From contig RHLJ01000006.1 of assembly GCA_003712055.1 (NCBI GenBank), positions 186,001 through 250,000 of the forward strand: DNA of 64,000 bases. Direction: 5' to 3'. Shown piece by piece: positions 9,979-19,932 of the stretch. A program made the translations under genes and the position numbers. Source of the stretch: Balneola sp. Its GTDB lineage: Bacteria > Bacteroidota > Rhodothermia > Balneolales > Balneolaceae. The notes beneath the pieces were generated by a model. The model did not search any database. It worked only from the letters and a program-made list of their open reading frames with translations, and was not told the origin of the DNA. Position 1 is the first letter of the stretch. Each line of letters starts with the position of its first letter.

Positions 9979-11049
9979 TTAAAGTCGGATGATATTTACG
10001 CGGGTGCTGTCAGTTAAGCTTCCCTGTCCGGTAGTTACTACCATTTCGCCGTCATCCAATCCTGCTACTACTTCGATTGTAGAACCATTTACATAGCCTG
10101 TTTGAATAATTTTTCGGAAGGCAAGGGAATCTTTGATTACAAACACAGACTGGATTTCATCTTCAGACATGATCGCTGCTTTAGGAATCATCTTGGTATT
10201 CATCCGTGTATCGTATACGATCTTTACACGACCGAACATGCCTGGTCTAAGCATATCCTGATTATCATCCAGATAAACAGTTACTTTAAAAGTACCCGTT
10301 TGAGGGTCGATGATAGGACTAATTCTTTCTACTCGACCTGTAAATAGCTGTCCTGGAATAGCATCAGCGATCATCTCAGCTCTTTGTCCCGCCTTTATTT
10401 TAGCGCGTTCATGTTCAGGGATAAACAAATTAGCCTGAATAGGATCAAAATCAGTTACACGGAATGCCTGCTGATCGGTACCAATCATATTGCCAACTTT
10501 TATAAATCGCTCTGAGATAACACCATTAATTGGGCTTTTTATATTAGTGTGTTCGTAATTTAGCTCGGCAAGATCGTAAGCTGCTTTTTGTGATTCATAT
10601 TCGTAACGGGAGTTTTCATAAATTTCCGCAGCAAGTAAATCTCTGTCGAACAATTCCTTGTTTCGTTGGTAATCATTGTAGAGTCGATCCAGGGTAGCTT
10701 TAGCTCTTTCACTTTCAATCCTGTATTGATCATCTTCGATCTTAGCAATGACTTGACCAGCTCTTACATAGTCACCCTCCTCGACCATAAGCTCTTGTAC
10801 AAGTCCTCTTACTTTTGCTACGATAGTGGCTTCTTCCACAGCTTCGAGAGTAGCGGTATTGGAGTAGTAAGCTGAAATATCTCCTCTTGTAACATCATTT
10901 ACTTCCACTGGGATAGCCAGAGTGGAATCGGCATCATTCTCATTATTATTGTTATTGTTGTTTTGATCGCCTCCGTTGCTGCATGCCTGAAGAGTAAATA
11001 TGGTAACAGCAGAAGCTACTAAGAAGTGTCCGAAGCGTTTTGTTTTCAT
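9979..11049 (-). CDS. RND efflux periplasmic adaptor (membrane fusion) lipoprotein
   Basis: A 356-residue membrane-fusion protein that would link the two permeases to an outer-membrane channel. It begins with a lipoprotein signal peptide ending LQACSNG (Cys23), followed by an Asn run and an acidic stretch that may act as a flexible linker. The lipoyl/barrel-sandwich half-motifs are visible as VAKVRGLVQELMVEEGDYV and INGVISERFIKVGNMIG, separated by an alpha-hairpin rich in Glu, Lys and Tyr. The beta-barrel segment DPIQANLFIPEHERAKIKAG follows. It is the first gene of the operon; transcription runs through both permeases to the terminator at 3602-3630. No promoter matching the phylum consensus stood out upstream. 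Confidence 0.92.
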   Translation of the reverse strand: MKTKRFGHFLVASAVTIFTLQACSNGGDQNNNNNNNENDADSTLAIPVEVNDVTRGDISAYYSNTATLEAVEEATIVAKVRGLVQELMVEEGDYVRAGQVIAKIEDDQYRIESERAKATLDRLYNDYQRNKELFDRDLLAAEIYENSRYEYESQKAAYDLAELNYEHTNIKSPINGVISERFIKVGNMIGTDQQAFRVTDFDPIQANLFIPEHERAKIKAGQRAEMIADAIPGQLFTGRVERISPIIDPQTGTFKVTVYLDDNQDMLRPGMFGRVKIVYDTRMNTKMIPKAAIMSEDEIQSVFVIKDSLAFRKIIQTGYVNGSTIEVVAGLDDGEMVVTTGQGSLTDSTRVNIIRL

Positions 11050-11494: not shown

Positions 11495-12032
11495 AGTGGT
11501 TGTGGCGATGCTGCTAAAAGTAGTTAAGAAGAAATTTCGGATTGGGTACATTCGATCTTTGAATACATGGTATGAAGCTCAAGTTTGTACCTAATAGTCA
11601 AATATATGCGCAAGAATGAAAAATTCTTGTAGCTACTTTTAGTCTACTCACCCTCAACTGAGAATCAACATTCAGCATTTTTAACATCATGAAGACCAAT
11701 AATTTACCATTATGACAATCATTACAATTAGGTTGTATCTATCTCTTGTAATACACATCTTAATGATGCGACAAGGGTTAGAGAACAAACATAGTGTAAA
11801 AGGAGTCACTACACATTCGCAGTTCTAACTACAAGGATAGGTACAAGCAGGAAAATCAGTCAAGCTTTTGTGTACCTATTCATGGATAGATTAGGCTATC
11901 CGTCACGTCAATTAAGAAGAAAAACTAACAATTCAGTTGACTAACAGTTATGAGTACTCTATGTAGAAGAAAAAAGGGAACAGGAAAAAGAAGCCCGGCA
12001 CCCGCTTCCGCTGATAGTACGGGAGGCAAGCA

Positions 12033-13457
12033 ATGAAAAAGATATTAGTAAGTACCTTGCTTAGCCTTCTTTCAATTTCCCTGGTTGTTGCTACCGAAGA
12101 ATGCTACTTTGCCCCCACGGCAACCATTACCAATACTCCTTCCGGGCTTAGCTTTAGAGACGGCACCGAGATTGTATTTTCCGGGGAAACCAGTACGCCA
12201 AACAACTGTAGTGGATATATCACCACCTACCAATGGACCATTGAAGGGAGTACGTATACCGGTCCCACAAAAACCCACACCTTTAACTTACCTGCCAATG
12301 TACATGAGCAAAGTTATACCGTCTCATTAAAAGTGTGGAACAACATTAGCCTAACCAATACCACAAGCATTACGGTAACCATCAAACGCCCGCAGCGGGT
12401 GTACTTCCTTAAAGATCACATTGGTAATGTGCGCACCAGTGTAGATGTAGATGGGAATGTACTAGGCTACGATGATTACTATCCCTTTGGGCTACAAATG
12501 GACGGGCGCTCCAATAACTCCTCCAACCCAAATGATGATTACAAATTCACCGGGCATGAGCAGGACGACGAAGCCAGCCTGACGATGGTACACATGAATG
12601 CCCGGGGTTATGATCCACTCCTAGGCCGCTTCAACCAAATGGATCCGTTAATGGAGTTCTCCTCCTCGTACACCTATGTAGGAAATAACCCCCTCAACTA
12701 CACCGACCCAACCGGAATGAGTTCGTGTGGTTCTTCCTATGTAACCTTTTGTGGGCAGGATGGAGAGATTTATGCTAGTCCTGAAGCCAAAGCACAGGCA
12801 GACAATCAAGCCATAGTTGATGGGCTACGAACACTAGTAGAAAAAAATAAAAATGGCCAAACTGGTAGTAATCAATCATCTCAATCAAGTTCGATTGAAA
12901 ACGATACTCCTGAGAGTTCTGAAGTACCTAGTCAACAAACTGTACCCGAATTTGGGCCTAATCCATATTTTGGAGAGATGGAATATTTTGAAGGTGATCT
13001 AATTACTTTTGGCTTGCAACTAATGTGGTTACTATCTCATCCAGGTAAAGAAGAAGGTGTTGCTGTAGAGTTGGCTGCATATCTTCTCGAGGATGAAAAC
13101 GGTAATTTTAGTTTGGTAATTTTCAATCCCGCTACATATGGTAATACTTCGAGAAGTGGTAGTTTTTATCTGCCGAATTACGACGGAAGCAATACAACCT
13201 ATAGAGACCGTCATGTAATTGCATTTATACATACACACCCAGGATGGAATGTAAATGGAAATATCGTAGCTGGAGGAAATGCTCCATCTGATACGGATCT
13301 TGCTACAGCAAGAAAATTTAACATGCAGGGTTTTATATTAGGACAAAGAGGAGTAAGTCATTTTTCAGCACAAGGTAGGTCCAGTTTTCTTGGGAGCAGA
13401 GAATCCTTCTTTCAAGGTAATCGATTCTTAGAAGAAGCAATCAAAAGATATAGGTGA
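12033..13457 (+). CDS. Secreted short Rhs-core protein with C-terminal JAB/MPN-like metalloprotease tip (polymorphic toxin candidate)
   Basis: A 474-residue protein with a GGGAGG ribosome site six bases before the ATG. Residues 1-20 form a Sec signal peptide (KKILVSTLLSLLSISLVVA). Residues about 25-118 resemble a PKD-type beta domain (YQWTIEG then SYTVSLKVWN). Residues about 128-228 are the Rhs repeat-associated core: GNVRTSVDVDG, DDYYPFGLQM, ARGYDPLLGRFNQMDP and the junction NNPLNYTDPTG. After a Ser/Gln-rich linker comes a variable tip (about 320-474) with IHTHPGW and, 16 residues on, PSDTDLA. With an upstream Glu this matches the JAMM zinc motif HxHP...SxxD, so a peptidase or deamidase-like activity is inferred; DUF4329-type tips are a close alternative. 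Base composition falls from moderately GC-rich core to AT-rich tip, as is usual for swapped Rhs tips. The core is far shorter than in full Rhs proteins, so this could be a truncated form. Confidence 0.8.
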   Translation: MKKILVSTLLSLLSISLVVATEECYFAPTATITNTPSGLSFRDGTEIVFSGETSTPNNCSGYITTYQWTIEGSTYTGPTKTHTFNLPANVHEQSYTVSLKVWNNISLTNTTSITVTIKRPQRVYFLKDHIGNVRTSVDVDGNVLGYDDYYPFGLQMDGRSNNSSNPNDDYKFTGHEQDDEASLTMVHMNARGYDPLLGRFNQMDPLMEFSSSYTYVGNNPLNYTDPTGMSSCGSSYVTFCGQDGEIYASPEAKAQADNQAIVDGLRTLVEKNKNGQTGSNQSSQSSSIENDTPESSEVPSQQTVPEFGPNPYFGEMEYFEGDLITFGLQLMWLLSHPGKEEGVAVELAAYLLEDENGNFSLVIFNPATYGNTSRSGSFYLPNYDGSNTTYRDRHVIAFIHTHPGWNVNGNIVAGGNAPSDTDLATARKFNMQGFILGQRGVSHFSAQGRSSFLGSRESFFQGNRFLEEAIKRYR

Positions 13458-13461
13458 AATA

Positions 13462-13899
13462 ATGAAATTAGAAAAAGGAATACTCAAGTTCGTAATCTAC
13501 TTTTCCATGTTTTCTTTATTTAGTTGTAAAAACTCAATTACTATCGATAATGATAGATTGAAAATGAAAGATATTAATGGTGTTGAGCTTTCAATTGCAG
13601 GTGAAAATGTGAAAAAGTTTGAAGAGATTTTTCTTTCAAACGGATTATTCCCTCTAGAAGACGATACTTGGTTTGTAATTGAAGAAGATTATTATTCCAA
13701 ATATGATTTGACTCCTGACTCCACAGTTAACCCAAAAAATCTAAAAGTGATCCTATTCAGCAAGGATATCAAAGGTAAAAAGCTATATGAAGATAATTCA
13801 AAAGATATTATTACCTCATTTATATCAATTGCGTGGCATTTAGCGATTAAATATGACGAAGAAACAGATGAAATAATTGAAGTGGTAAATCAATTCTAA
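13462..13899 (+). CDS. Small lipoprotein, candidate immunity protein to the Rhs tip
   Basis: A 145-residue AT-rich gene starting four bases after the Rhs stop; its ribosome site (AGGTGA) lies inside the end of the Rhs gene, implying translational coupling. The N-terminus is a lipoprotein signal (VIYFSMFSLFSCKN, Cys23). The mature part is acidic and Lys/Asp-rich with no family I recognise; the end reads WHLAIKYDEETDEIIEVVNQF. Genes directly after a polymorphic-toxin tip usually encode its specific immunity protein. A lipid-anchored immunity protein would fit a toxin that acts in the periplasm. The function is inferred from position only. Confidence 0.65.
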   Translation: MKLEKGILKFVIYFSMFSLFSCKNSITIDNDRLKMKDINGVELSIAGENVKKFEEIFLSNGLFPLEDDTWFVIEEDYYSKYDLTPDSTVNPKNLKVILFSKDIKGKKLYEDNSKDIITSFISIAWHLAIKYDEETDEIIEVVNQF

Positions 13900-13949
13900 A
13901 TGTTAATGGGTAGAGCCTGATTTCTTTTGGACAATCGAAGAATACAGCT

Positions 13950-14099
13950 ATGTATGAACTTTCACATGTTTTATTAACTACGATTCTGGTAGAGGAAAGC
14001 ATGAAAGTATTAGAAGGTCATCATGATGTATATGATTTATATACCCAAACTGTAACGAAGATCAGAGTTTTCATAAATGCAATGAAAGGAGGACAATAA
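13950..14099 (+). CDS. Possible 49-residue small protein or gene remnant
   Basis: An ATG at 13950 opens a frame that ends at 14097-14099 and reads MYELSHVLLTTILVEESM...TKIRVFINAMKGGQ. It has balanced amphipathic composition and fills the gap between the two candidate immunity genes; its last codons supply the AAAGGAGG ribosome site of the next gene. The frame is open back to 13914 without a better start, so it may instead be the 3' remnant of a longer gene. I do not recognise the sequence. Confidence 0.35.
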   Translation: MYELSHVLLTTILVEESMKVLEGHHDVYDLYTQTVTKIRVFINAMKGGQ

Positions 14100-14100
14100 A

Positions 14101-14463
14101 ATGAGATTAGAAATTTTGAGGTTTCTTTATGATGGGAAAATAATACTAGGTGTATTTATTCTGATGATTATTATTGGCTTTTTCTTTAAAGAAAGAAGGA
14201 AACTTATAGTATATAATCTTATCGTCAATTCGATATTCATAGTTTTGTTTGTTGCAATGATACTTATTGAAAAGACTTTAGAATACCCGTCTTTTATTAT
14301 AATGGATAAAATTGCATTTGCAAATTGGTCATATGATATGCTTTATAAACATTCAGATAAATTCATTGGACTTATAATTTATCTTGGAGCTAACTTGTTT
14401 GTGATATATGAAAAGTTAGTTTTTACAAATGAAGGTAAAGAGTCAGAGAATATTATTGAATAA
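14101..14463 (+). CDS. Small inner-membrane protein, candidate second immunity protein
   Basis: A 120-residue protein with a strong AAAGGAGG ribosome site. Hydrophobic helices appear at about residues 14-29 (IILGVFILMIIIGFFF), 37-56 (YNLIVNSIFIVLFVAMILI) and 88-104 (FIGLIIYLGANLFVIYE), consistent with three membrane spans. The loop after the second helix carries EYPSFIIMDKIAFANWSYD. No family is recognised. It lies in the same AT-rich block as the lipoprotein gene downstream of the Rhs tip, so it may be a second immunity gene or an orphan from an earlier tip. It is followed directly by a decayed Rhs core fragment. Confidence 0.6.
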   Translation: MRLEILRFLYDGKIILGVFILMIIIGFFFKERRKLIVYNLIVNSIFIVLFVAMILIEKTLEYPSFIIMDKIAFANWSYDMLYKHSDKFIGLIIYLGANLFVIYEKLVFTNEGKESENIIE

Positions 14464-14496
14464 GAAGTTTTCTTCATAACTGTACTGACACATGTT

Positions 14497-14569
14497 CATC
14501 TGGGTACGATAAGAACCAGTGTAGATGTAGATGGAAATGTATTCGGCTGCGATGATTACTATCCCTTTA
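14497..14569 (+). pseudogene. Displaced decayed Rhs core fragment
   Basis: The reading HLGTIRTSVDVDG then DDYYPF repeats the Rhs core of the upstream gene. Bases 14518-14568 match 12438-12488 with four mismatches in 51, and homology stops abruptly on both sides. It lacks a start and runs into palindromic sequence. Such core scraps downstream of immunity genes are typical scars of tip replacement by recombination. Confidence 0.8.
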
Positions 14570-14934
14570 ACCTAGTTACGGAGCTCTGCTCCGTGACGGA
14601 AGGGAAAACTTAGCTCTACTACGGGACATTTTGCGATTATTACCCCCACTTTAGACACCTCTATACCGACGCAGATAATTTCAATGTTGTGCAACACCCA
14701 CGGACGCTGGGACTTTTGTTTGTTTGGGGCTACTGAATGGCTTTAAAAGGTTTCCGCATTCACTTTCAAATCCAAGACTTGAAAGGCCTCTGTATCCAAT
14801 TATGGTATATGAAGGCTAATGGTTGGAGCAGAGCTCCAATTTGGGTGCCGCAGTAGAGCTACAGAATCAGTAGGAACTTCAGCGCTATTGATGAAGCGAA
14901 GAGTTTGCACAGTAATTTCCCTCCTCTTGTAAGA
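14570..14934. repeat. Non-coding tail of Rhs locus with paired hairpin units
   Basis: This 365-base stretch has no credible gene. It contains hairpins ACGGAGC-TCT-GCTCCGT (14578-14594) and TTGGAGC-AGA-GCTCCAA (14823-14839), and a long-range 10-base inverted pair TAGCTCTACT (14611-14620) with AGTAGAGCTA (14852-14861). Each unit has the same GC-TCT-GC centre (or its complement). The DUF3047 gene follows on the opposite strand. Confidence 0.65.
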
Positions 14935-15690
14935 TCAGTTATCGTTCAGGGGCAGGCTTCTAAACACGATATCACCATAATACCCTTTACTTTCCGCCTT
15001 TGTATTATCGGAATCGGTCATAATAGCTACTCCTGAAATTCTTGGAGGTTCTTCGCCAAAAGCTGCTTTGTAATCCTCCACTATATTTCTGGATTCAAAT
15101 TTCCAATCGCCACTTTCATTTTTTCCGGATTGTACGGCTACCATATATACCCAATTTGTATATGCGTTGGGAGCAATGGTTTCTGTCTCGGCTTTATTTG
15201 CCCATACATAGTTAAGAGCCCGGAGCGGAATTTTATACCTGGTAAAAGTTCGTATGGCTTCATATTTGACCCGGTCACCGAATTTTAACTTTCGTTTGCT
15301 ATAATCAAAGGTGATATAAATTCTGGCTGCATAGTCATCCCCATCTTTTGTTTTGTAGTTCCCTTGTTCTAGTACATCATCTACTTTCCAGCTCCATTCT
15401 ATAATTGGATATTCGTTAGGATCTATATCTACCTTATATATAAGGCCAGAGGCACTGTTCTTACTTTCTCCCTTAATAGCTGTACGATCGTTCATCTCAA
15501 CAAGGGTGTAGGTTGTTTTATCTCTTCGGGGAAGAGATAGAATTGACCACTTAGGATTTTCCACATACTCCTCTAGTTGTTCCGGGTTGAATTCAGTAAC
15601 CGGGATAGATATTGCATCTTGAGAAAATGCAAAAGAAGCAGTGGTAGCAAAAACAAACGCTAACCAGATAAAGCTCTTTAGAAATTTCAT
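14935..15690 (-). CDS. DUF3047 family exported protein
   Basis: A 251-residue protein starting at the ATG at 15690; the frame runs further upstream but the signal peptide begins here (KFLKSFIWLAFVFATTASFA, cleavage near FSQ). The mature part shows the DUF3047 pattern: YPIIEWSWKVDDVLEQGNYK, DDYAARIYITFDY and the end GVAIMTDSDNTKAESKGYYG. DUF3047 proteins are periplasmic or outer-membrane-associated beta-rich proteins of unknown biochemical role. Its upstream region is the AT-rich stretch shared with nrdJ, so the two genes are transcribed divergently. Nothing suggests a link to the Rhs locus on its other side. Confidence 0.85.
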   Translation of the reverse strand: MKFLKSFIWLAFVFATTASFAFSQDAISIPVTEFNPEQLEEYVENPKWSILSLPRRDKTTYTLVEMNDRTAIKGESKNSASGLIYKVDIDPNEYPIIEWSWKVDDVLEQGNYKTKDGDDYAARIYITFDYSKRKLKFGDRVKYEAIRTFTRYKIPLRALNYVWANKAETETIAPNAYTNWVYMVAVQSGKNESGDWKFESRNIVEDYKAAFGEEPPRISGVAIMTDSDNTKAESKGYYGDIVFRSLPLNDN

Positions 15691-15943
15691 CTTATTTTTT
15701 TTGATCAGTAACTGGGCTATTTCACTTTTAGTTTCTCGAAAAGGGCTTTGTGATAAAAATGTTAAACTTTTTTTCTTAAGGCTACAGGGATAGGGGATAG
15801 GTTTGCTGTGAAAAATCTGTCCGAAACCCAAAAAATATCAATACAAAAAAAAGGAATATAAATCATATTATTTATCATTTATACTAAAAAATAACAAATG
15901 AAATTTATGAATAAATATTATCTAAATTAAGTTTGAAAAGAAT

Positions 15944-15956
15944 TTAATGTGGATAA
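15944..15956 (-). promoter_or_regulatory. DnaA box 1 (TTATCCACA) in 13-base repeat
   Basis: TGTGGATAA at 15948-15956 is the exact complement of the strongest DnaA box, TTATCCACA. It sits in a 13-base unit, TTAATGTGGATAA, that recurs 161 bases downstream. Confidence 0.7.
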
Positions 15957-16104
15957 CTTTTCAAGGCCTTGACTTAATAAACATGCTTTTATTAATGTTT
16001 TAACGTAATTTTTATTGGCTGTTCAATATTTTTTTAAATCGATAAAATAGTAATTCATATAATTAAAATAACGTTAACCAATCTTTATTAAATTTAAATA
16101 TTAG

Positions 16105-16117
16105 TTAATGTGGATAA
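16105..16117 (-). promoter_or_regulatory. DnaA box 2 (TTATCCACA) in 13-base repeat
   Basis: The second exact TTAATGTGGATAA unit, in the same orientation as the first. It lies about 37 bases upstream of the -33 element of the nrdJ promoter, a position suited to transcriptional control. Confidence 0.7.
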
Positions 16118-16153
16118 GTAATACTTTTTGTGGAAAAAAAGTCCAGATTTAAT

Positions 16154-16184
16154 TTGTTAGCCTACTTGCCTGCCTATATATTTG
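16154..16184 (+). promoter_or_regulatory. Bacteroidota-type promoter of nrdJ
   Basis: TTG at 16154-16156, a 20-base spacer, then TATATTTG at 16177-16184 match the phylum's primary sigma consensus TTG-N19/21-TAnnTTTG. The start of transcription would be near 16191, giving a leader of about 88 bases. Confidence 0.65.
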
Positions 16185-16228
16185 AGGGCACTTCTTTAGG
16201 AGAATCAGCTTGAATTCTCGAGGGGTTG

Positions 16229-16263
16229 ACGGTATTAAATCCACGAAAGACTAACACGAAATC
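16229..16263. repeat. Dispersed-repeat-like segment in nrdJ leader
   Basis: The stretch AAATCCACGAAAGACTAACA and the following CGAAATC resemble short sequences of the CGTGTTAGTCTTTCGTGG type that I recall as dispersed in Bacteroidota genomes. It lies between the promoter and the nrdJ start. Only one copy is visible in this window. Confidence 0.35.
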
Positions 16264-16278
16264 TACAGTATTACGCCA

Positions 16279-19200
16279 ATGAAGTTTACTCGCTTTTATA
16301 CAAATCCTGAATGGTCTACTCCCTATGACGGGATGAATTTTGTCAAGAGAACCTCAGAAATTAAAAACCCGGACGGCTCACAAGTATTCTTTATGGAGAA
16401 CGTGGAAGTACCTGAGTCATGGTCTCAAGTTGCAACTGATATTATTGCACAGAAATACTTCAGGAAAGCAGGCGTACCTGCCGCTCTTAAAAAGGTATCT
16501 GAAAAAGGAGTGCCCGGCTGGCTTCAGCGTTCTGTAGCGGATGAAAAGGAATTAAAAAATCTCTCTGAGGAAAAGCGCTTTTCTCATGAGGTTGATAGTA
16601 GGCAGGTATTTAGTCGCCTGGCTGGGTGCTGGACATACTGGGGATGGAAGCATGATTATTTTGATACCGAAGAAGATGCCAAGATTTTCTATGATGAACT
16701 TTGCTACATGCTTGCTAATCAAATGGCAGCTCCTAACAGCCCACAGTGGTTCAATACAGGATTGAACTGGGCCTATGGAATTAACGGGCCTGCTCAAGGT
16801 CATCATTATGTAGATGCGAAAACTGGGAAACTTACTCGATCAAAAGATTCTTATACGCATCCTCAACCTCACGCTTGTTTTATCCAAAGTGTGGATGATG
16901 ATTTGGTGAATGAGGGAGGAATCATGGACTTATGGGTGCGTGAAGCACGTTTGTTTAAGTATGGTTCAGGTACCGGAAGTAATTTTTCTTCTATCCGTGG
17001 TGCGAATGAACCACTCAGTGGGGGAGGAAAATCTTCCGGATTAATGAGTTTCCTTAAAATTGGAGATCGAGCTGCGGGAGCTATTAAATCTGGTGGTACC
17101 ACTCGACGTGCTGCTAAAATGGTTACTCTTGATCTCGACCATCCTGATATTGAAGAATATATCAACTGGAAGGTGAAAGAGGAGCAAAAAGTAGCTGCAC
17201 TTGTTGCTGGCTCAAAAATGACTCAAAAGCATCTTAAGGATATTATCCGCCTTTGCCATACTCCGGTAGAAATTGAAGGAAGAACTTTTAACGGAGCAAT
17301 GAGCCGTGACCCGCTCAAGAATAAGGAGCTTGGAAAAGTAATTCGTCAGGCTAAGCGTGACCAGGTTCCTCTCAATTATATAGAGCGGGTAATCCAGCTT
17401 GCAGCTCAGGGATATAAGGATCTTGAATTCGAAACGTATGATACAGACTGGAATTCAGAAGCATATGCTACTGTAGCCGGTCAAAACTCGAATAACTCTG
17501 TTCGTGTTCCTAACGCGTTCATGAAAGCTGTTAAAGATAATTCTGAATGGAATCTGTATTGGAGGGTAGAAAAGGAAACAGCAGAAAAAGAAGGTCGCGA
17601 GCCTAAACCTTGCAAAACGCTTGAAGCACAGGAAATGTGGGATCAAATCGCATATGCTGCGTGGGCTTCAGCTGATCCGGGTACACAGTACCATGATACC
17701 ATCAACGAATGGCATACGTGTCCTGAAGATGGAGAAATCAGAGCAAGTAACCCATGTTCTGAATACATGTTCCTGGATAACACAGCATGTAATCTTGCTT
17801 CATTGAACTTAATGAAGTACTTCACCGATGAAGAATGCACCACCTTTGATGTAGAGTCTCTTCGTTATGCTTCCAGAATCTGGACCACCGTTCTTGAGAT
17901 TTCTGTTCTCATGGCTCAATTCCCATCTAAAGAAATCGCAGAGCTTTCTTATGTATTCAGAACTCTTGGGCTAGGTTATGCCAATATTGGTGCTGCGCTT
18001 ATGGTACAAGGGATTCCTTATGATAGTGCTGAAGGGGTAGCAATTGCCGGAGCACTTACAGCAATTATGCATATGAAAGCCTATGAAACAAGCGCAGAGC
18101 TGGCTGGTGAGTTAGGTGCCTTTGAAGGATATGAGCGTAATAAGGAGCACATGCTTCGTGTAATGCGTAATCATAGACGTGCAGCTTATAATGCAGCACC
18201 AAAAGAATATGAAGGCCTGACTGTTAAGCCTTTAGGTATCGATGCATCAATTTGCCCTGATTACCTTCTTAGTGCAGCCAAAGAAACTTCAGATGCAGCC
18301 GTTGAGCTGGGTGAAAAGAATGGATATAGAAATGCACAGGTAACGGTACTTGCTCCTACAGGTACTATTGGCCTGGTAATGGACTGTGATACAACTGGTG
18401 TTGAGCCAGATTTCGCACTTGTGAAGTTTAAGAAACTTGCGGGTGGCGGATACTTCAAGATAATCAACCAGAGTGTACCAAGAGCATTAAAGACATTAGG
18501 ATATACTCCCAAAGAAGCTGAAGCGATTATCAATTATGCAAAAGGTCATGCCACACTGGAAGGCTGTCCGCATATCAACCCGGAATCTCTGAAGGCGAAA
18601 GGCTTTACCGATGAGAAGCTGGAAGCAATTGAAGCAGGCTTACCTAGCAGTTTCGATATTAAATTTGCGTTCAACCACTTCACATTAGGTGAAGACTTCT
18701 GCAAAGAAGTACTTGGGATTACGGAAGAGCAGTTATCTGACTTTACCTTTGATATGCTTAAACATTTAGGATTTAGTAAGGAGCAAATCCAGGAAGCCAA
18801 TGATTATGTTTGCGGAACCATGACCGTAGAAGGTGCCCCTCATCTAAAAGATGAGCACCTTGCAGTTTTTGATTGTGCGAATAAGTGCGGACGAATCGGA
18901 ACCCGTTATATCTCCGCAGAAGGTCATATCAAGATGATGGCGGCTGCACAGCCATTCCTATCAGGAGCAATTTCCAAAACCATTAACCTTCCAAATGAAG
19001 CAACAGTGGAAGACATGAAAGACGCTTATATGCTTTCATGGGAAATGATGTTGAAAGCAAATGCTCTTTATCGTGATGGTTCTAAGCTTAGCCAGCCATT
19101 GAATAGTATGGCAGATGTGTTTGAAGAACTGGATGAGGAAGAAGAAACACCTGCAGATCCAGTAGTTGCCAAAGCTCAGGATCAGGTAGTTGAGATTGCA

Positions 19201-19932
19201 GAGCGCATCATTCACAAATATGTAGCTCGTCGTCAGAGACTTCCTTTCCGGCGTGAAGGATATACTCAAAAAGTGAAAATAGGTGGACAAAGCGTTTATC
19301 TAAGAACAGGCGAATACGAAAACGGTCAGCTTGGTGAGATCTTTATTGATATGCACCGAGAAGGCGCTGCTTTCCGAAGCTTACTGAACTGTTTCGCTAT
19401 TTCTATCTCTTTAGGTCTTCAGCACGGAGTGCCACTAGAGGAATTTGTGGATGCCTTTGTATTCACCAAGTTTGAGCCAAGCGGTATGGTAAATGGTAAC
19501 CCACATGTGAAGATGAGTACATCGGTAATCGATTACATCTTCCGTGAATTAGCAGTTACGTATCTTGGAAGAGAAGATTTGGCTCACGTGCCAGCTGATC
19601 AAATTCATACTCGTGATCTACGCCCAATGGAAGATGCAACGGCTACTGCTGCTGCCATAGCAACTCCGGCACCAGTGCCAGCACCTGCTGCGCCTCCAGC
19701 ACCGGCAGAGGCTAAGATTCCGGAAGTAGTTGAACAGGTAATCACTGAAACACAAGCAACGGTTCAGGCTGTGAAAGCAGAAAAGGCAAGTAGCTACGAA
19801 AGTGATTATGAGAAAGCAAAGCAATTAGGTTATACAGGTGATGCATGCCCTGAATGCGGAAGCATGACGATGGTACGCAATGGCACATGTATGAAGTGTA
19901 TTACTTGTGGCTCTACCTCAGGCTGCAGTTAA
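16279..19932 (+). CDS. nrdJ: Adenosylcobalamin-dependent (class II) ribonucleotide reductase
   Basis: A 1217-residue oxygen-independent reductase that turns ribonucleotides into deoxyribonucleotides in the cytosol using a B12-derived thiyl radical. Visible landmarks are [15 protein letters not shown] near residue 150, [12 protein letters not shown] near 195 with a redox Cys, and [20 protein letters not shown] near 490 with the radical-site Cys. [20 protein letters not shown] lies near 690. After about residue 1120 an Ala/Pro-rich linker leads to a C-terminal zinc-like tail [19 protein letters not shown] that ends CGSTSGCS, the shuttle cysteines of long NrdJ enzymes. Length is typical of the long bacterial NrdJ form. 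It stands alone, with DnaA boxes and a consensus promoter upstream; no B12 riboswitch was seen in its leader. Confidence 0.97.

What the first reader, a model, noticed from the sequence alone, without database searches (positions are those of the whole stretch)
12033..14463. Secreted mini-Rhs with a JAB-like protease tip and envelope-located immunity candidates
The Rhs protein is short, has its own Sec signal peptide and a PKD-like domain, and ends with an HxHP...SxxD tip. The next genes encode a lipoprotein and a three-helix membrane protein. Most Rhs effectors act inside target cells with cytosolic immunity. This arrangement suggests a toxin acting on an envelope target and immunity on the same side of the membrane.
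Basis: partly seen in the sequence, partly recalled or inferred. Interest (0 to 1): 0.65.

Follow-up and report, generated by a model that had tools for sequence, protein, structure and literature searches.

The report
Orphan cartridge of split Rhs toxin
The gene encodes the separately secreted, swappable warhead half of an antibacterial Rhs toxin that in sister loci is built from several exported proteins; here it has lost its shell partner but kept a metalloprotease-like warhead and a probable lipoprotein antidote, while the neighbouring membrane protein is the leftover antidote of an older, displaced warhead.

Summary
The features described are all present: a 474-aa protein with a Sec-type leader, a PKD domain, a C-terminal Rhs core and a JAMM-like tip (E346, H400xH402P, S419xxD422), followed by a lipoprotein gene and a three-helix membrane protein gene. 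The context changes the reading. Two other loci in this genome, and one locus each in two relatives, encode a split Rhs: an exported shell that stops just before the core, an exported CBM20/TPR protein, and an exported PKD-core-tip "cartridge" like this one. The window copy is an orphan. Shell and adaptor genes are missing, and the shell's upstream region and start codon are fused in frame to the last codons of the adaptor gene. The lipoprotein (13462) is the likely antidote. The membrane protein (14101) is not: its homologues follow HExxH zincin tips, and a zincin-tip remnant lies just before it here. JAB tips sampled here are followed by exported-type antidotes. This fits an envelope target and argues against the published nuclease idea, but lipoprotein immunity to Tox-JAB-1 was already described in 2012. 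The newer element is the split, separately secreted cartridge. Function, delivery route and assembly in trans are inferred, not shown.

The parts
11727..11962 (+). Upstream (promoter and leader) region of a split-Rhs shell gene, now standing in front of the cartridge
   Evidence: 76-77% identical to the DNA upstream of both shell genes in the same genome, C4:485685-485916 and C1:928553-928763 (alignment). The promoter itself was not demonstrated (promoter matches at chance level).
11950..12036 (+). 28-codon leader ORF: shell start codon and first codons fused in frame to about the last 23 codons of the CBM20/TPR adaptor gene; its TGA overlaps the cartridge ATG (ATGA)
   Evidence: MSTLCRRKKGTGKRSPAPASADSTGGKQ* against shell starts MRTLF/MRALF and adaptor ends ..RSTSADSTGGNQ* / ..PTPVSADSTGGNQ*. 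The corresponding distance is 7.8 and 7.6 kb in the two sister loci.
12033..13457 (+). Secreted Rhs cartridge: signal peptide, PKD, Rhs core, variable tip (474 aa)
12033..12095 (+). Sec signal peptide region (residues about 1-21)
   Evidence: KK n-region, hydrophobic core, VVA|TEE; similar leaders in the nine other intact cartridges aligned. Predicted by inspection only.
12114..12386 (+). PKD domain (residues about 28-118)
   Evidence: PF00801 E=2.4e-7; AlphaFold2 pLDDT about 73-94
12393..12719 (+). Rhs core domain (YFLKDHIGNVR...DPTGM), residues 121-229
   Evidence: TIGR03696 E=4e-18; aligns to residues 1744-1856 of a fused Rhs protein, directly after the point where the sister shells end (1737-1738)
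12960..13454 (+). JAMM/JAB-like tip (residues 310-474), with E346, H400, H402, S419, D422
   Evidence: DUF4329 sub-threshold E=0.0046 and Prok-JAB E=0.22; homologue L080; Foldseek top hits are JAMM1, CSN5 and AMSH
13462..13899 (+). Predicted lipoprotein (145 aa), likely cognate immunity protein
   Evidence: Starts 5 bp after the cartridge stop; lipobox LFSC; no Pfam, NCBIfam or PADLOC match; not Imm65-like by profile comparison
13944..14099 (+). Remnant of a displaced HExxH zincin tip (TAMYELSHVLLTTILV..., first metal His now Tyr)
   Evidence: tblastn E=0.006 in a restricted database, best match the HEFVH tip of L073; supported by the homologous next gene
14101..14463 (+). Three-helix membrane protein (120 aa): probably the retained immunity gene of the displaced zincin tip
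   Evidence: 37% identity, E=5e-19, to L073:12694-13056, and E=1e-9 to L073:16703-17056; both follow HExxH tips
14515..14568 (+). Remnant of another Rhs core
   Evidence: 93% identical over 54 bp to the cartridge's own core

Best explanation
The gene is an orphan cartridge of a split, Sec-exported Rhs polymorphic toxin. In the complete operons the Rhs protein is encoded as separate exported parts: a shell of about 1650-2050 aa that ends just before the Rhs core; a CBM20/TPR protein of about 570 aa with its own signal peptide; and a cartridge of signal peptide, PKD domain, Rhs core and variable toxin tip, followed by the tip's immunity gene. In the periplasm or at the surface the core would dock into a shell, perhaps with help from the PKD domain and the TPR protein, and present the tip for delivery to a competitor. 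In the window, shell and TPR genes are gone, but the shell's upstream region, start codon and the ATGA coupling were kept, so the cartridge can still be expressed and could be loaded into the C4 shell in trans. The tip is a divergent JAMM metalloenzyme, most likely a peptidase acting on a periplasmic or outer-membrane target, neutralised by the 13462 lipoprotein. The 14101 membrane protein protected against an earlier zincin tip that has been displaced. Shown from sequence: split architecture, fusion junction, tip and antidote displacement, JAMM motif. Inferred: export, assembly, delivery, enzyme activity, target, immunity.
For: Split operon with ATGA-type overlap between adaptor and cartridge genes in C4 (L028), C1 (L029), G025 (L071) and G039 (L073). 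The shells run to residue 1737-1738 of the G003 fused Rhs proteins, and the cartridge cores begin at 1741-1747 in most comparisons. Junction. Ten intact cartridges share signal peptide, PKD and core, and their tips become unalignable after DPxG. JAMM evidence. In the sampled loci, 9 of 9 JAB tips with a readable next gene are followed by a gene with a lipobox, signal peptide or N-terminal membrane helix, against 13 of 22 other tips. Zincin remnant plus matching immunity gene. No T6SS sheath gene in the genome, consistent with Sec export.
Against: No expression, secretion or toxicity data. The tip fold rests on a two-sequence alignment with pLDDT 64 and no Foldseek E-value below 1e-3 in PDB. 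The JAB versus other comparison is p=0.025 counting loci, but 0.11 if related immunity genes are collapsed. A Salmonella study lists DUF4329 Rhs tips as RNases with 'No/CdiI' in the immunity column (column heading not read), so not every DUF4329-type tip need be periplasmic. How the parts cross the outer membrane is unknown. The orphan may be a decaying relic, although its ORF and the lipoprotein ORF are intact.
Confidence: 0.6

Rival explanations
1. One reading: a self-contained secreted mini-Rhs effector that needs no shell, with both neighbours as envelope immunity.
For: The ORF is complete, has its own leader, and stands alone in the window. Tandem cartridges in G025 and G039 each keep a signal peptide.
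Against: The junction shows it derives from a shell-adaptor-cartridge operon. The core is only the last segment of an Rhs shell and was not confidently predicted to fold alone. 14101 belongs to zincin tips.
Confidence: 0.15
2. A relic: after loss of shell and adaptor the cartridge is no longer delivered, and only the immunity genes are under selection.
For: Neighbouring remnants (13944-14099, 14515-14568) show decay at the locus. The related genome G039 has no Rhs at this site.
Against: The 474-aa frame is intact with catalytic-type residues, and start codon and translational coupling were preserved. A shell with a closely matching cartridge exists at C4 for use in trans.
Confidence: 0.2
3. 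The JAB tip is a nuclease acting in the cytosol, as proposed for toxin JAB domains in PMC3482391 and as DUF4329 is annotated (RNase) in later T6SS surveys.
For: Published proposal based on RadC-like divergence; RNase labels in PMC10469887 and PMC7216683.
Against: The immunity genes next to JAB tips sampled here carry lipoboxes, signal peptides or N-terminal membrane helices, which would place immunity outside the cytosol. The sister non-JAB tip in L028 has a leaderless neighbour instead.
Confidence: 0.12

Closest known systems
Tox-JAB-1 / Imm65 polymorphic toxin pairs of Bacteroidetes (Zhang et al. 2012, PMC3482391; Pfam PF15659 Toxin-JAB1)
   Same: JAB-type tip on an Rhs core with an adjacent lipoprotein immunity gene. 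An annotated B. finegoldii Toxin-JAB1 protein (L107) is followed by an ORF with a lipobox-like start. The L071 tip of a sister cartridge is a sub-threshold match (E=0.095).
   Different: The window tip does not match PF15659 and its lipoprotein is not recognisably related to these lipoproteins. It sits on a short, separately secreted cartridge.
Tox-JAB-2 / DUF4329 (PF14220) with Imm-NTF2-2
   Same: Closest profile to the window tip (E=0.0046, below cut-off). In other genomes of the phylum DUF4329 tips are followed by exported-type immunity genes.
   Different: Below the curated cut-off, and the immunity protein looks unrelated by sequence.
Rhs orphan-tip arrays and tip displacement
   Same: Variable tip swapped behind a conserved core; older tip remnants and immunity genes retained downstream.
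   Different: The cassettes here carry their own start codon, signal peptide and PKD domain, so each is a complete exported protein rather than a silent 3' fragment (the classical form is from own knowledge).
TcB/TcC cocoon of Tc toxins (also Rhs proteins)
   Same: Rhs shell built from more than one polypeptide, with core and toxin on the last one (own knowledge, not tested here).
   Different: The split is immediately before the core instead of mid-shell, each part has its own Sec leader, and a CBM20/TPR gene lies between.

Membership tests
Rhs polymorphic toxin | Rhs-associated core domain ending in a DPxG motif | tested here: met
   TIGR03696 E=4e-18; DPTGM at residues 225-229
Rhs polymorphic toxin | YD/RHS repeats forming a shell | tested here: not met
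   None in this ORF; in sister loci they are on a separate gene
Rhs polymorphic toxin | Variable C-terminal tip next to an immunity gene | tested here: met
   Carriers conserved, tips unalignable; immunity function itself not tested
JAMM/JAB metalloenzyme | E ... HxHP ... SxxD motif | tested here: met
   E346, H400, H402, S419, D422; E, HxHP and D kept in L080
JAMM/JAB metalloenzyme | JAMM fold | tested here: inconclusive
   Moderate model; top PDB hits are JAMM proteins but E=1.9e-3 at best
JAMM/JAB metalloenzyme | Zinc binding and isopeptidase/peptidase activity | not testable with these tools
   Needs biochemistry
Toxin-JAB1 (PF15659) / Imm65 | Profile match of tip | tested here: not met
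   No match to PF15659; B. finegoldii protein matches at 3.6e-25
Toxin-JAB1 (PF15659) / Imm65 | Adjacent lipoprotein immunity | tested here: met
   Lipobox protein 5 bp downstream; sequence relation to the lipoproteins of Toxin-JAB1-like tips not found
DUF4329 / Tox-JAB-2 | Score above the curated cut-off 28.6 bits | tested here: not met
   17.4 bits, E=0.0046
T6SS Rhs effector | T6SS in the genome | tested here: not met
   No VipB sheath gene

The most novel reading that the evidence does not exclude
This bacterial family has broken the Rhs toxin into separately secreted modules, so that interchangeable core-tip cartridges, including orphans such as the window gene, are loaded in trans into a shared Rhs shell outside the cytoplasm, with the CBM20/TPR protein and PKD domain as docking parts. 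One shell could then serve several warheads without recombination.
Probability: 0.35. Interest if true: 0.78.

Novelty: new variant of a known kind. Interest (0 to 1): 0.56.

Why it matters
Solved Rhs toxins are closed shells that enclose their own tip, so tip exchange is thought to need recombination into one gene (own knowledge). A natural split at the shell/core seam, with separate Sec leaders, would let cargo be exchanged at the protein level and gives a direct experimental handle on how Rhs shells load and release toxin. It also shows a Sec-exported Rhs system in a genome without a T6SS sheath gene. Second, the exported immunity genes next to JAB tips make the open question of what toxin JAB domains cut directly testable, and favour an envelope peptidase over the published nuclease suggestion.

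Tried and rejected
Tip search in genome contigs with one sequence and with an alignment found nothing, nor did plasmids. A viral-contig search with the carrier found nothing. PADLOC: no match. Rfam: none. The idea that 13462 belongs with the Imm65-type lipoproteins was tested by hhalign and not supported. The idea that 14101 is a second immunity for the JAB tip was rejected. T6SS delivery was rejected. Reading the orphan as a deletion at this very site could not be settled: the syntenic site in G039 is simply empty, so it may have arrived already reduced. A full-length cartridge model gave a confident fold for the PKD domain only, so it does not support or refute core docking.

Full report
What is there. 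The window lies at G000:C6:186001-250000. ORF 12033-13457 encodes 474 aa: an N-terminal Sec-type leader, a PKD domain, the Rhs-associated core and a tip of about 165 aa with HTHP and SDTD. The next genes encode a lipobox protein (13462-13899) and a three-helix membrane protein (14101-14463; helices).

The carrier is part of a split Rhs. Searching the same genome with this DNA found a locus on C4 that is 81% identical from just before the start codon through the core, and one on C1 at 70%. Both carry a three-gene order: an exported Rhs shell, an exported protein of 566-567 aa with CBM20 and TPR matches (C4 and G025 copies), and a cartridge like the window gene, which overlaps the adaptor gene by ATGA. 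The C1 shell is frameshifted near its start. The C4 and C1 shell genes end in ..WVLPGG[IL]GIIN[NY]. Compared with fused Rhs proteins of relatives, the shells run to residue 1737-1738 of the G003 proteins and the cartridge cores start at 1741-1747 in most comparisons (1729 for the C4 copy, where a few PKD residues also align), so shell plus cartridge together equal one ordinary Rhs protein, cut just before the core, with a leader and PKD domain added at the new end. The same operon is present in G025 (another genus) and G039 (same genus), among 92 family genomes searched; the adaptor was found in 4 of 92, one of them a weak partial match (G037). Ten intact cartridges share leader, PKD and core and then diverge completely. 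Several stand in tandem, each with its own leader (three in G025; several in G039). In G025 the shell itself is also in two ORFs, the second again with a leader. Within this genome, the C4 and C1 shells match poorly on the N-terminal side and 54% over the last 409 aa, while adaptors are 82% and carriers 69% identical, so conservation rises towards the seam. That fits docking, but does not prove it.

The window copy is an orphan. Window 11727-11962 matches the DNA upstream of the two shell genes, and the sequence directly around its end reads ATGAGTACTCTATGT|AGAAGAAAA...GCTGATAGTACGGGAGGCAAGCAATGA: the shell start codon joined in frame to about the last 23 codons of the adaptor gene, ending in the ATGA overlap with the cartridge. 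The corresponding stretch is 7.6-7.8 kb in the sister loci. The upstream region and translational coupling are thus retained. In G039 the same flanks (RND adaptor, DUF3047-like gene, ribonucleotide reductase; names from own knowledge) have no Rhs between them, so the island is variable and the reduction may have happened before or after arrival.

Neighbours. The 14101 protein is 37% identical (E=5e-19) to the gene after a HELAH tip in L073 and weakly similar (E=1e-9) to the gene after a second, HEFVH, tip there. In the window, bases 13944-14099 read TAMYELSHVLLTTILV..., the degraded end of such a tip (the match alone is weak, E=0.006, but the linked gene makes the case). A second core remnant lies at 14515-14568. 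The order is therefore current JAB tip, 13462, degraded zincin tip, its antidote, older core: the usual picture of tip displacement with retained immunity. 13462 is the only candidate antidote directly after the JAB tip.

The tip. Pfam gives only sub-threshold DUF4329 and Prok-JAB. A relative in another family of the phylum (L080/L105) keeps the motif and is followed, with a 4-base overlap, by a gene with a leader. The AlphaFold2 model is moderate, but PDB matches are led by JAMM1, CSN5 and AMSH, with phage proteins named as JAB-domain also among the viral-library matches. JAMM is therefore likely, not proven.

Where does it act? A carrier leader proves little: the L028 cartridge, with an 85% identical carrier, ends in another tip followed by a leaderless 113-aa protein. 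The antidotes say more. In my sample the gene after a JAB-type tip starts with a lipobox, signal peptide or membrane helix in 9 of 9 cases, against 13 of 22 other tips (p=0.025, or 0.11 after collapsing related antidotes; prediction by a simple hydrophobicity rule, and several loci were found because they are JAB tips, not drawn at random). Zhang et al. (PMC3482391) had already noted the lipoprotein Imm65 beside Tox-JAB-1, and proposed that toxin JABs are nucleases; later T6SS surveys label DUF4329 an RNase. The exported antidotes favour an envelope target in these bacteria. Salmonella DUF4329 tips may differ, and I did not fetch those effectors.

Delivery. No T6SS sheath gene was found in this genome; the T9SS protein SprA is present, but the cartridge's C-terminus is the tip, so a C-terminal T9SS signal is not expected there. 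How the parts cross the outer membrane is unknown.

Literature. No paper in the held library combined Rhs, PKD domain and polymorphic toxin, and no description of separately secreted Rhs cartridges turned up. Absence from an open-access library is weak evidence of novelty.

Noticed in passing
L029:17111-17566 and 11599-17151 (G000 C1): The C1 shell gene is in two overlapping frames around a repeated GGATTATG; either a real frameshift or an assembly error, so only the C4 shell may be functional.
   Followed up: partly
L071:2158-8271 and 16347-19899 (G025): Two Rhs shells are themselves divided in the middle, the second half again starting with a signal peptide, suggesting repeated fission of Sec-exported Rhs proteins.
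   Followed up: partly
L030:16967-17923 (G000 C5): Rhs orphan tip resembling an L,D-transpeptidase (HGG...SRGCIDL), followed by a small two-helix membrane protein.
   Followed up: no
L030:7273-7632, 10676-11014, 12051-12434, 18216-18599; L076: Small HTH (XRE-like) genes in opposite orientation are interleaved with the Rhs tips; window 14715-14746 overlaps a 29-bp, 97% match to the 3' end region of one, a probable remnant.
   Followed up: partly
L099 (G440): Several near-identical DUF4329-type tips, each followed by a near-identical antidote with an N-terminal membrane helix, within 14 kb.
   Followed up: no
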